From positions 1-23,522 of IMG/VR virus record IMGVR_UViG_3300047281_000018: 23,522 nt of DNA. The stretch is one strand, 5' to 3'. Origin of the DNA: a virus. Positions within the stretch are counted from its first letter, which is position 1. Each line of letters begins with the position of its first letter. This document shows positions 12,741 through 19,403 of the stretch, piece after piece. The notes under the pieces were generated by a model. It had not been told where the DNA came from, did not search any database, and saw nothing but the letters and a program-made list of their open reading frames with translations. The position numbers were made by a program, and so were the translations under genes.

Positions 12741-12760
12741 GAACTACCCGACAAATAGAC

Positions 12761-12794
12761 AAAACCCCCGGTCATGAGGTGAGCCGGGGGTTTT
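12761..12794. terminator. Bidirectional terminator between convergent operons
   Basis: Bases 12761-12771 (AAAACCCCCGG) pair perfectly with 12784-12794 (CCGGGGGTTTT), an 11-bp stem with a 12-base loop. It provides a T tract in either direction. It lies between the stops of the + strand lysis genes (12740) and the - strand thyX gene (12807). Confidence 0.92.
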
Positions 12795-12806
12795 GCTTTA
12801 TCTGGG

Positions 12807-13502
12807 CTAGGGTGCGACCCTACCATTCTTGACGAATACCTTGTGTGTTACTGGCATACATCCCGAGAAGAACGTTTCCATCTTCTCTGCTACCATCTCG
12901 ATTTCCCTCTGAGGGAACGATGGATAGGTACTTGCTTCATCTTTTGTGCGTAAACTCAAGAAGTTCATTAGGCTTCTCGCATTCATTGTGACATACATTG
13001 AGCTGAAGATATTCACAGGTAGGACCATTCTCGCAACTTCACGAGCAATGCCATGGTCTAACATAGTTAGATACTTACCATAGGCATCTTTGGATGATGC
13101 CATAATTAGTCTCTGAGTAATTAGCGTATCTTCTGCTGTGCCGGGGATAAATTCATAAGCCCCGACTTTGCCAATCTGGATTAGGTTGCGGTCTAGATGT
13201 GGCAGGTAAAACACTGGTTCAAGTTGCTTGTATCTTCCGGACTCTTCGTTATAAGATGCCATGCGGTGACGCATGAACTCCCTAAAGACGAAGATTGGTG
13301 CTTCGATTCTGAATGTAAAACTGTTGTGTTCAAATGGTGAGCCATGCCTGTCTCGCATGAGGTAGTTGATTAGCCCCTCATCACGCTCAGGAGCGTCCTC
13401 TGCGCCACTTGACACCCTTGCTGCCATAGCCACTGCTTTGTCGCTTGCCATAGCGTCTACAAGCTCTACAGTGACATCCGTTCTAAACGTTATATTTGTC
13501 AT
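12807..13502 (-). CDS. thyX: FAD-dependent thymidylate synthase ThyX
   Basis: This 231-residue enzyme would make dTMP from dUMP using methylene-tetrahydrofolate and FAD/NADPH, supplying thymidine for phage DNA. The signature RHR-x7-S is intact at R78 H79 R80 ... S88 (RHRMASYNEESGRY). The rest of the fold is full length, including NLIQIGK-like and LPVNIFSSMYVTMNARSLMN segments. The start is supported by AAGGAGG four bases upstream. It is the last gene of the - strand arm, eight bases after the small gene upstream of it. Nothing suggests inactivation. Confidence 0.96.
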   Translation of the reverse strand: MTNITFRTDVTVELVDAMASDKAVAMAARVSSGAEDAPERDEGLINYLMRDRHGSPFEHNSFTFRIEAPIFVFREFMRHRMASYNEESGRYKQLEPVFYLPHLDRNLIQIGKVGAYEFIPGTAEDTLITQRLIMASSKDAYGKYLTMLDHGIAREVARMVLPVNIFSSMYVTMNARSLMNFLSLRTKDEASTYPSFPQREIEMVAEKMETFFSGCMPVTHKVFVKNGRVAP

Positions 13503-18367: not shown

Positions 18368-18395
18368 ATATCCTCCTTATTATTGTTTATCTCTC

Positions 18396-18463
18396 GTGAA
18401 CCGCTGGGACTCGAACCCAGAACTTCCCCTATCGAGGTGTTATGCCTATTTCACTACGGTTCT
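18396..18463 (-). ncRNA. tRNA-like element with defective anticodon arm
   Basis: Read on the - strand, 18463-18457 pairs with 18403-18397 (six pairs plus an A-A at the end). The T arm at 18420-18404 is textbook (CTGGG TTCGAGT CCCAG). A D-arm-like GTG...CAC with GG in the loop follows the acceptor. Only about 16 bases separate the D and T arms where about 23 are needed, and no 5-bp stem with a 7-base loop and T33 can be drawn. It is either a decayed tRNA gene or a genuine tRNA mimic. Confidence 0.55.
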
Positions 18464-18480
18464 AGCCGTTCTCGTACGAG

Positions 18481-18574
18481 GGTGGACCAACCTTGATGGA
18501 TGCACCCTGGTTGGCCTAATGTCTGTAATCAGATTTAACCAACCAAGTGTGGTGCACTCGTTTATCTTACCACC
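18481..18574. ncRNA. Nested hairpin element with alternative pairings
   Basis: Stems nest inward: 18481-18485 with 18570-18574 (5 bp), 18501-18506 with 18551-18556 (6 bp), 18508-18514 with 18539-18545 (7 bp), and 18522-18525 with 18530-18533 (4 bp, loop TAAT). The GGTTGG at 18509-18514 can instead pair with CCAACC at 18487-18492, so two folds exclude each other. Strand is uncertain; neighbours suggest the - strand. Confidence 0.5.
18564..18572 (-). promoter_or_regulatory. Possible second copy of the TGGTAAGAT element
   Basis: TGG TAAGAT on the - strand lies inside the outer helix of the nested hairpin element. It could give a second transcript start near 18557, or it could simply be a structural repeat. 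There is no -35 support. Confidence 0.2.
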
Positions 18575-18598
18575 TGCCTCGGCAATGGGTGACAAGAC

Positions 18599-18662
18599 CA
18601 GCAATTCCGTAGGACTGCGTACCGTGGGATTAACCAAAGCACCGTTGCGAAAGGAACTGCTG
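18599..18662 (-). ncRNA. Stem-loop element closed by a 10-bp helix
   Basis: Bases 18653-18662 pair with 18599-18608 over all ten positions when read as - strand RNA, with one G-U. On the + strand that position would be an A-C mismatch, so the - strand is favoured. The 44-base interior contains only short helices (for example TGG/CCA). It is not a recognisable tRNA or riboswitch. Confidence 0.4.
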
Positions 18663-18669
18663 TTTACTA

Positions 18670-18698
18670 CTACCATGACCTACGCACATAAGTGGTAG
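18670..18698 (-). ncRNA. Small hairpin next to tRNA-Asn
   Basis: CTACCA at 18670-18675 and TGGTAG at 18693-18698 form a perfect 6-bp stem with a 17-base loop. The loop includes TACGCACA (18681-18688), which recurs at 18840-18847 in the larger tRNA-like element. It may be a shortened relative of that element. Confidence 0.35.
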
Positions 18699-18723
18699 AT
18701 ATCGGGGAGGTAGCCTGCCCTCG

Positions 18724-18796
18724 CTCCCTGCGCTGGACTCGAACCAACGACATTTCGGTTAACAGCCGAATACTCTACCAACTGAGTTAGCAGGGA
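18724..18796 (-). tRNA. tRNA-Asn (anticodon GTT)
   Basis: The - strand gives a complete cloverleaf: acceptor TCCCTGC/GCAGGGA (7 bp), D arm ACTC...GAGT with GG in the loop, anticodon stem TTCGG/CCGAA around loop CTGTTAA (anticodon GTT), a 5-base variable loop, T arm GTTGG TTCGAGT CCAGC, and discriminator G. CCA is not encoded. It is the only canonical tRNA seen in the window and would decode AAC and AAT. Confidence 0.96.
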
Positions 18797-18810
18797 ATGT
18801 TTATTGCAAG

Positions 18811-18916
18811 TGTCCCGACCTGGAATCGAACCAGAGTTGTACGCACAAAGGAGGAGAGATAAAGCGTACAGTACCAACGGGGACTAGCGAGGTAGTTTTA
18901 AGTCATACCTCAGGAC
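18811..18916 (-). ncRNA. Oversized tRNA-like element with anti-Shine-Dalgarno loop
   Basis: On the - strand, 18916-18910 (GTCCTGA) pairs over all seven positions with 18818-18812 (TCGGGAC), with A as discriminator. A T arm, TCTGG TTCGATT CCAGG, lies at 18835-18819. Between them are a stem GGTA/TACC, extendable to GAGGTA/TACCTC if it borrows two acceptor bases, with loop TGACTTAAAAC, and a perfect 6-bp stem GTACGC/GCGTAC (18869-18864 with 18844-18839). The latter has a 19-base loop containing CCTCCTTT at 18854-18847, identical to the core of the 16S rRNA 3' end. There is no anticodon arm. At 106 bases it is too long for a normal tRNA. An alternative 73-base reading has a poorer acceptor. Confidence 0.5.
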
Positions 18917-18929
18917 TGCCCATTAGGCT

Positions 18930-18938
18930 ATCTTACCA
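18930..18938 (-). promoter_or_regulatory. Possible extended -10 element upstream of the RNA region
   Basis: The - strand reads TGG TAAGAT over the stop codon of the DUF669-like gene, which would start a transcript near 18923, just before the large tRNA-like element. The same ten bases (TGGTAAGATA) recur at 18572-18563. There is no clear -35 hexamer. Confidence 0.25.
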
Positions 18939-19403
18939 GACAGCGCCAACTGCGGTTGCTCCAGTCGCTGCAAGTGCTGCAGCTGCTGTGTCGGTGGACT
19001 TATCAAACCCACCTACCTCGTTACGAGGCTGGTTATTCTGGTCAACACCAATCTTCACACGAACACCGATTGGCTTACCAAGCAAAGCCTCAGGCTCTGG
19101 AACGGTGAACGAACCAGCACCCATATCAATGCCGAGCGAGGAGAAGAACGCCTTGGTCTTCCAGAAATCTTTTGCTACATAGAGTGGAACGTAACTGAAC
19201 ACTCGGCGGTTTGCAACGCCATTGTCAGTCAGTTTGAACTGGATGTTGAATCGTGGCTTACCTTCGTTAGGGCCAGACTTAACTGTCTCTGATACTACGT
19301 TGAAGATGGTGGCATTGTAACTGCCTTCTGGAACCGGAGTGTAGTCTCCGCCAGTGGTTGAATCTAGTGCTTCCTGTGTGATGTCGAACTTAATTGCGCT
19401 CAT
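18933..19403 (-). CDS. DUF669-like protein, probable single-stranded DNA-binding partner
   Basis: The product is 156 residues from ATG 19403, with GGAGG upstream. The core is strand-rich: YTPVPEGSYNATIFNVV, then GPNEGKPRFNIQFKL, then RRVFSYVPLY, KDFWKTKAFFSSLGID, and GKPIGVRVKIGVDQNNQPRN. This order matches phage DUF669-type proteins, commonly found next to Sak4-like ATPases and thought to bind single-stranded DNA. The tail (TAAAALAATGATAVGAVW) is Ala-rich and flexible, unlike the acidic tails of typical SSB proteins. It lies two bases after the ATPase gene, so the two are probably co-translated. Confidence 0.7.
   Translation of the reverse strand: MSAIKFDITQEALDSTTGGDYTPVPEGSYNATIFNVVSETVKSGPNEGKPRFNIQFKLTDNGVANRRVFSYVPLYVAKDFWKTKAFFSSLGIDMGAGSFTVPEPEALLGKPIGVRVKIGVDQNNQPRNEVGGFDKSTDTAAAALAATGATAVGAVW

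What the first reader, a model, noticed from the sequence alone, without database searches (positions are those of the whole stretch)
18368..18932. A 565-base packed array of structured RNA elements around one tRNA-Asn
Seen: from right to left on the - strand there is a 106-base tRNA-like element, tRNA-Asn, a 6-bp hairpin, a 10-bp-closed stem loop, a nested hairpin, and a second tRNA-like element, with almost no unstructured DNA between them. No open frame here looks coding. Inference: this is either an array of dedicated small RNAs or a decaying tRNA cluster. An array of tRNA-like mimics in a replication operon would be new to me.
Basis: partly seen in the sequence, partly recalled or inferred. 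Interest (0 to 1): 0.62.

Follow-up and report, generated by a model that had tools for sequence, protein, structure and literature searches.

The report
Pseudoknot plus tRNA mimic before primase
Between two DNA-replication genes of an environmental phage lies a conserved RNA made of a small knot followed by a false tRNA, whose 'anticodon' loop can pair with the start signal of the next gene; it is absent from the RNA family library and is probably a processing and translation switch.

Summary
The first '106-base tRNA-like element' is two joined modules (18810-18925, minus strand): an H-type pseudoknot right after the ssb-like gene, then a tRNA-like structure (TLS) with acceptor stem, D-loop GG and T-arm, but no D-stem and no anticodon arm. 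Instead it has a long arm whose loop holds an anti-Shine-Dalgarno stretch. I found it in 53 distinct versions, nearly all at the same ssb-primase junction. All stems covary strongly: 95.6% of cells paired, score 0.737 against 0.216 shuffled. No Rfam family matches it. The loop co-evolves with the primase ribosome-binding site. The pseudoknot alone is widespread between phage genes (about 250 instances from capped scans), sometimes directly before a tRNA and never directly after one. tRNA-Asn is genuine. A second TLS (18396-18463) and a two-hairpin module (18564-18662) have weaker support. Best mechanism (inferred): the TLS is cut like a tRNA, the pseudoknot caps the ssb mRNA 3' end, and the TLS loop masks the primase start until processing. 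No experiment shows function. Nearest precedents are the yjdF riboswitch and the T4 gene 32 operator; it is neither.

The parts
18933..19403 (-). ssb-like gene upstream of the element
   Evidence: ORF of 156 aa; PHROG matches include a single strand DNA binding protein, E 9.9e-5
18888..18917 (-). H-type pseudoknot: S1 AGTC/GACT (18914-18917 with 18901-18904), S2 TGAGGTA/TACCTCG (18906-18912 with 18888-18894), A-rich loop 3 TAAAAC (18895-18900)
   Evidence: S1 has 23 and S2 20 different stem versions in 53 elements; a pseudoknot as good arises in 0.23% of shuffles; S1 covaries on alignments made without structure
18918..18925 (-). conserved leader TAATGGGC just before the pseudoknot, role unknown
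   Evidence: kept in most relatives
18811..18884 (-). tRNA-like structure: acceptor 18878-18884 with 18812-18818, D-loop-like GG at 18874-18875, T-arm 18819-18835, discriminator A 18811
   Evidence: all 5 scored acceptor pairs and 4 of 5 T-stem pairs show double changes and both stems are 100% paired; GG in 52/53, discriminator A or G in 53/53
18810..18810 (-). C directly after the discriminator, as in tRNA 3' ends
   Evidence: C in 53 of 53 elements, next base variable
18838..18870 (-). arm replacing the anticodon arm: stem TGTACGC/GCGTACA around a 19-nt loop
   Evidence: 7 of 7 pairs with double changes, 94% of cells paired
18845..18863 (-). loop TTTATCTCTCCTCCTTTGT with anti-Shine-Dalgarno stretch
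   Evidence: complementary to the primase leader; own loop matches own site better than permuted sites
18371..18395 (-). proposed pairing sites in the primase leader: GAGAGATAAA (18386-18395) and Shine-Dalgarno AAGGAGGA (18371-18378)
   Evidence: sequence
18723..18796 (-). tRNA-Asn (GTT), ordinary
   Evidence: ARAGORN, Rfam 64.3 bits; also present in close relatives
18564..18662 (-). two-hairpin module (10-bp-closed stem-loop plus nested hairpin)
   Evidence: z -2.79; homologues in L001, L002, L083 at shuffled positions keep 30-32 of 32 pairs
18499..18560 (-). stem-loop GTGCACC...GGTGCA
   Evidence: fold z -1.99 for 18468-18560; no homologue found
18462..18499 (-). 38-nt stretch just before the second tRNA-like element, conserved in L001
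   Evidence: 94.7% identity to L001:4868-4905
18396..18463 (-). second tRNA-like element with intact acceptor and T-arm but a 4-nt anticodon-like loop; degenerate tRNA or second TLS
   Evidence: Rfam tRNA 32.5 bits; ARAGORN does not call it; tRNA-Trp stands here in L002, L003, L008, L010
16163..18367 (-). primase/helicase gene downstream of the element
   Evidence: phrog_10514 E 9e-157

Best explanation
A composite cis-acting RNA punctuates and controls the ssb-primase mRNA. (1) Shown by comparison: a pseudoknot and a tRNA-like structure form in the transcript. (2) Inferred: the TLS keeps the acceptor/T-arm half, the elbow contact (GG with the T-loop) and a tRNA-like 3' context (purine then C), so RNase P, and possibly the tRNA 3' enzymes, cut it out as they would a tRNA. 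(3) Inferred: the upstream ssb mRNA is left with the pseudoknot as its 3' end, which slows 3'-to-5' decay. (4) Supported by co-variation but untested: before processing, the loop that replaces the anticodon pairs with the primase Shine-Dalgarno region and keeps primase translation low; cutting, or a bound factor, frees it. The outcome would be separate levels of SSB and primase from one operon.
For: 53 distinct elements, 22 of 24 scored pairs with double changes, score 0.737 against 0.216 shuffled and at most 0.111 slid; pseudoknot stem S1 covaries on structure-blind alignments; one element per locus and none elsewhere in 600 kb among strong hits, apart from a tandem pair in L038. Loop against own primase site beats permuted sites with one representative per primase cluster: 15 clusters p = 5e-5 (duplex energy 5.5e-4), 6 clusters p = 0.0035, including swaps such as CTTCTTCTCC with GGAGAAGAAG. 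C74 in 53/53 and A/G73 in 53/53, while position 75 varies. The pseudoknot occurs widely about 13 nt after a stop codon and is followed within 160 nt by a tRNA in 16 of 249 cases (14 of them starting 5-14 nt away), preceded by one in 0. A published tRNA-like regulator pairs 9-11 nt with its ribosome site and is freed by folding (PMC9142559).
Against: No RNA or protein experiment exists. Loop-site complementarity is partly generic, since any pyrimidine-rich loop pairs with Shine-Dalgarno sequences: in most loci other sites in the contig pair as well or better, the duplex-energy test fails at the deepest informative clustering (p = 0.19), and the window alone is weak (86/2000 shuffles). In the window 443 nt with a tRNA gene separate loop and site. 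The anti-SD loop is missing in L067 and in the isolates Amigo, Molivia and WaterT. A role in 3'-end protection rests on position only; neighbour orientation leans that way weakly (24 against 15). Twelve of the sixteen tRNAs are tRNA-Asp or otherwise alike, so those cases are not all independent.
Confidence: 0.45

Rival explanations
1. SSB feedback operator: the phage SSB protein binds the pseudoknot and spreads, repressing primase or stabilising its own mRNA, as T4 gp32 does with the pseudoknot before gene 32.
For: The pseudoknot lies beside an ssb gene in this clade, and in this clade was seen only there; T4 gp32 nucleates on a ~28-nt pseudoknot upstream of a ribosome site (PMC535899).
Against: Here the pseudoknot follows the ssb gene; in other phages the same pseudoknot stands between many unrelated genes; it does not explain the TLS.
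Confidence: 0.15
2. Trans-acting small RNA: the excised TLS is stable and uses its anti-SD loop to block translation of other phage or host mRNAs.
For: The loop resembles the 16S 3' end and pairs well with other gene starts; the element persists when hundreds of bases and tRNA genes separate it from primase.
Against: Loop and primase site change together across clades, which a general decoy would not need.
Confidence: 0.15
3. Pure processing signal: TLS and pseudoknot only separate and stabilise mRNAs; the pyrimidine loop is incidental.
For: The acceptor/T-arm half is the constant part; TLSs with other, non-decoding loops stand before related primases in Arthrobacter and Microbacterium phages, and an ORF-less tmRNA tRNA-like domain in Stenotrophomonas phage Jojan60.
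Against: The loop is conserved in most of the clade and co-varies with the primase start.
Confidence: 0.2
4. Decaying tRNA cluster.
For: Gene content of the cluster turns over quickly among relatives; the second tRNA-like element looks degenerate.
Against: Compensatory changes in all stems of the first element and its presence where no tRNA gene remains.
Confidence: 0.03

Closest known systems
yjdF riboswitch (Rfam RF01764; PMC9142559)
   Same: tRNA-like fold in a leader with conserved D-loop GG and T-loop; a loop pairs with the ribosome-binding site in the off state; tRNA-like leaders affect translation
   Different: In yjdF the T-loop arm pairs with the site, here the arm replacing the anticodon arm; here there is an upstream pseudoknot, no known ligand, a phage context, and no Rfam match
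tRNA-like domain of tmRNA (RF00023)
   Same: Acceptor and T-arm with a D-loop lacking a D-stem; a related primase in phage Jojan60 has an 83-nt ORF-less tmRNA-like element at the same place
   Different: The window element does not match the tmRNA model and has no tag reading frame, no encoded CCA and no tmRNA pseudoknots
T4 gene 32 translational operator (PMC535899)
   Same: Short pseudoknot in an mRNA of a phage replication operon, near an ssb gene
   Different: Position is after ssb rather than before; followed by a TLS; the same pseudoknot also occurs beside unrelated genes
STAXI motif (RF01728)
   Same: Pseudoknot near ssb genes
   Different: Tandem repeats with UUCG loops in Enterobacteriales (PMC2864571); no match in three test records
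tRNA punctuation / mascRNA-type TLS processing (own knowledge)
   Same: A tRNA-like fold used as a cut site within a longer transcript
   Different: Shown in mitochondria and for MALAT1, not for phage replication operons

Membership tests
functional tRNA | 7-nt anticodon loop on a 5-bp stem | tested here: not met
   loop of 19 nt in the window, variable elsewhere; ARAGORN finds no tRNA at 18810-18925
functional tRNA | D-stem | tested here: not met
   GG lies about 3 nt after the acceptor strand with no stem
functional tRNA | acceptor stem, T-arm, discriminator | tested here: met
yjdF riboswitch | match to the Rfam covariance model | tested here: not met
   no match at E up to 5 in the window
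yjdF riboswitch | loop pairing with the ribosome-binding site | tested here: inconclusive
   co-variation supports it, no probing data
yjdF riboswitch | binds azaaromatic ligands | not testable with these tools
   needs binding assay
tmRNA | match to the tmRNA model and tag reading frame | tested here: not met
   no tmRNA match in the window
T4 gp32 operator type | SSB binds the pseudoknot | not testable with these tools
   needs binding assay
T4 gp32 operator type | pseudoknot lies in the leader of the ssb gene itself | tested here: not met
   it lies after ssb
STAXI | match to RF01728 | tested here: not met
   no match in three records carrying the pseudoknot; none in the window
RNase P substrate | cleaved at the 5' side of the acceptor | not testable with these tools
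   only the sequence context was checked

The most novel reading that the evidence does not exclude
Tailed phages share a general RNA punctuation system: a short covarying pseudoknot closes many gene ends and, where followed by a tRNA or a false tRNA, sets the cut; in this clade the false tRNA has also become a translation switch for primase by turning its anticodon loop into an anti-Shine-Dalgarno that co-evolves with the target.
Probability: 0.3. Interest if true: 0.88.

Novelty: new variant of a known kind. Interest (0 to 1): 0.74.

Why it matters
It would be an undescribed RNA family with strong comparative support, placed at a control point of phage replication. It joins three things seen apart before: a phage mRNA pseudoknot, a tRNA mimic and Shine-Dalgarno masking. 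Cultured Arthrobacter phages (Amigo, Molivia) carry the pseudoknot followed by an abnormal tRNA, and Microbacterium phage WaterT carries pseudoknot and TLS, all three without the anti-SD loop; so processing and pseudoknot function can be tested in the laboratory now. Some database 'tRNA' genes before primase in these phages have abnormal anticodon loops, so counts of phage tRNAs may be inflated by mimics.

Tried and rejected
Blast of the region against cultured phages found only tRNA-Asn matches among the rows listed. Rfam at loose thresholds gave nothing for the pseudoknot or first TLS; STAXI rejected. The single 106-base fold was rejected. Folding energy was uninformative. A per-contig ranking of loop targets was not specific to primase: best in 6 of 55 loci, top 0.5% in 15, partly because the loop core was cut short. 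Primase homologues in bacterial genomes: none. A strict pseudoknot pattern in bacterial genomes gave 3 hits: by eye one lies before an ERF-like, phage-type gene, one seems a chance hit inside a GC-rich Georgenia contig, one is unclear. Looking for the pseudoknot after Hsp20 genes of three cultured marine phages: absent. Whether the pseudoknot belongs to the upstream or the downstream gene stayed open. One genome search failed. Literature searches found no description of the element; the library lacks many subscription journals.

Full report
Setting. The window is an IMG/VR virus fragment of 23,522 bases. The finding lies on the minus strand between an ssb-like gene and a primase/helicase. The related primases in cultured phages are mostly from phages of Actinobacteria.

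Observation. tRNA-Asn at 18723-18796 is genuine. Rfam also sees a weak tRNA at 18396-18463. Eighty viral loci encode the same primase. In close relatives the same gap holds tRNA-Asn, Thr, Gln or Trp in changing sets; in more distant ones no ordinary tRNA is called and mostly only about 110-330 bases remain. What nearly all share is the part next to the ssb stop codon.

Anatomy of the shared part. It begins with ATGGGC in most relatives, then an H-type pseudoknot, then about three bases, then a tRNA-like structure. The acceptor stem is followed within a few bases by GG and then by a long arm with a large pyrimidine-rich loop, then a normal T-arm, then A (or G) and C. In 53 distinct elements the stems occur in 23 (S1), 20 (S2), 39 (acceptor), 27 (T) and 42 (arm) different versions that still pair. 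Parsing picked the best pairing, so two further checks were made. First, a covariance model built from ten sequences finds about one element per locus at the same junction in 600 kb on both strands; in 53 aligned hits 95.6% of cells pair, 22 of 24 pairs show double changes and the covariation score is 0.737, against 0.216 for shuffles and at most 0.111 for slid partners. That alignment was fitted to the structure. Second, pseudoknot stem S1, which the model did not contain, was counted on alignments made without structure: 100% paired with score 0.535 against 0.125, and with S2 95.3% with 0.360 against 0.098. Cells count related sequences, so these are not independent events, but the number of stem versions is large.

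The loop and the primase start. The loop reads CTCCTCCTTT, CTTCTTCTCC, TCTCCTTTT and so on, and the primase leader carries the matching AAAGGAGG, GGAGAAGAAG or AAAAGGAGA. With one representative per primase cluster, own pairing exceeds permuted pairing at 90% (32 clusters, none of 20,000 permutations), 80% (15 clusters, p = 5e-5; duplex energy p = 5.5e-4) and 72% identity (6 clusters, p = 0.0035; duplex energy p = 0.19). In the window the loop matches two places in the primase leader, GAGAGATAAA and AAGGAGGA, but the window alone is weak (86 of 2000 shuffled loops do as well). Other sites in the same contigs often pair as well or better, so general pairing to gene starts cannot be excluded.

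tRNA-like 3' end. The base after the acceptor is A in 50 and G in 3 of 53, and the next is C in all 53, while the one after that is free. From established knowledge this resembles the purine-C start of the tRNA 3' tail that RNase P contacts; cleavage itself was not testable.

Isolates. Arthrobacter phages Amigo and Molivia have the pseudoknot followed by a 'tRNA-Gly' with an abnormal anticodon loop. Microbacterium phage WaterT has pseudoknot and TLS. Other Microbacterium phages have TLSs without the pseudoknot just before the primase or its neighbour gene, read by eye. Stenotrophomonas phage Jojan60 has an 83-base tmRNA-type tRNA-like domain there, 61.8 bits against a cut-off of 47. Nonagon and Satis show nothing of the kind.

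The pseudoknot elsewhere. In 249 distinct instances the S1 stem outside the pattern pairs in 90% (type 2) and 78% (type 1), against 24.5% and 12% in shuffles. They lie a median 13 bases after a stop codon and 27 before the next reading frame. Sixteen have a tRNA within 160 bases downstream, fourteen of them starting 5-14 bases away; none has one upstream; most are tRNA-Asp, so they are partly related. Some type 1 hits will be chance, because that pattern is loose. In the primase clade the pseudoknot was seen only in the primase leader. A stricter pattern gave only three hits in bacterial genomes.

Rest of the array. The two-hairpin module (18564-18662) recurs in three other contigs at different positions and keeps 30-32 of 32 pairs. 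The second tRNA-like element has intact acceptor and T-arm but a 4-base anticodon-like loop, at a place where relatives have tRNA-Trp; decay or a second mimic cannot be told apart. The stem-loop at 18499-18560 has no homologue.

Comparison. The yjdF riboswitch also uses a tRNA-like fold and pairs 9-11 bases with its ribosome site (PMC9142559). T4 gp32 uses a pseudoknot before its own gene (PMC535899). The present element fails a defining feature of each. No paper found describes it, within the limits of the library.

Verdict. That the RNA element exists and is under selection is near certain. The mechanism is inferred: processing plus masking of the primase start is the best account, at about 0.45.

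Noticed in passing
L117-L354 (about 250 places), e.g. L295:7861, L280 minus strand: The same H-type pseudoknot, in two sequence types, recurs between unrelated phage genes, just after stop codons and sometimes directly before tRNA-Asp or other tRNAs.
   Followed up: partly
L104:2386-2468: Stenotrophomonas phage Jojan60 has an ORF-less tmRNA tRNA-like domain with encoded CCA upstream of its primase (Rfam 61.8 bits).
   Followed up: partly
L016, between tRNA-Thr and tRNA-Asn (about 1541-1622): By eye a second tmRNA-like domain (GGGACTGGAGTGGTTTCGATT ... CAGTTCC); Rfam did not report tmRNA there.
   Followed up: no
L038 and L028, ssb-primase gap: Two TLSs in tandem, the first without the anti-SD arm, with a structured stretch between them.
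   Followed up: no
L103:2075-2152, L111:1100-1253, L114:2164-2235, L116:2100-2173: tRNA genes annotated before primase in cultured phages have odd anticodon loops or anticodons (for example 4-nt anticodons, Ile-AAT) and may be mimics.
   Followed up: partly
window 12757-12825, minus strand: Terminator-like hairpin CCCCCGGC...CCGGGGG followed by TTTT at the end of thyX (weak NsiR1 match below cut-off).
   Followed up: no
window 18918-18925 and relatives: ATGGGC box before the pseudoknot is conserved though the adjacent stems vary; its partner is unknown.
   Followed up: no
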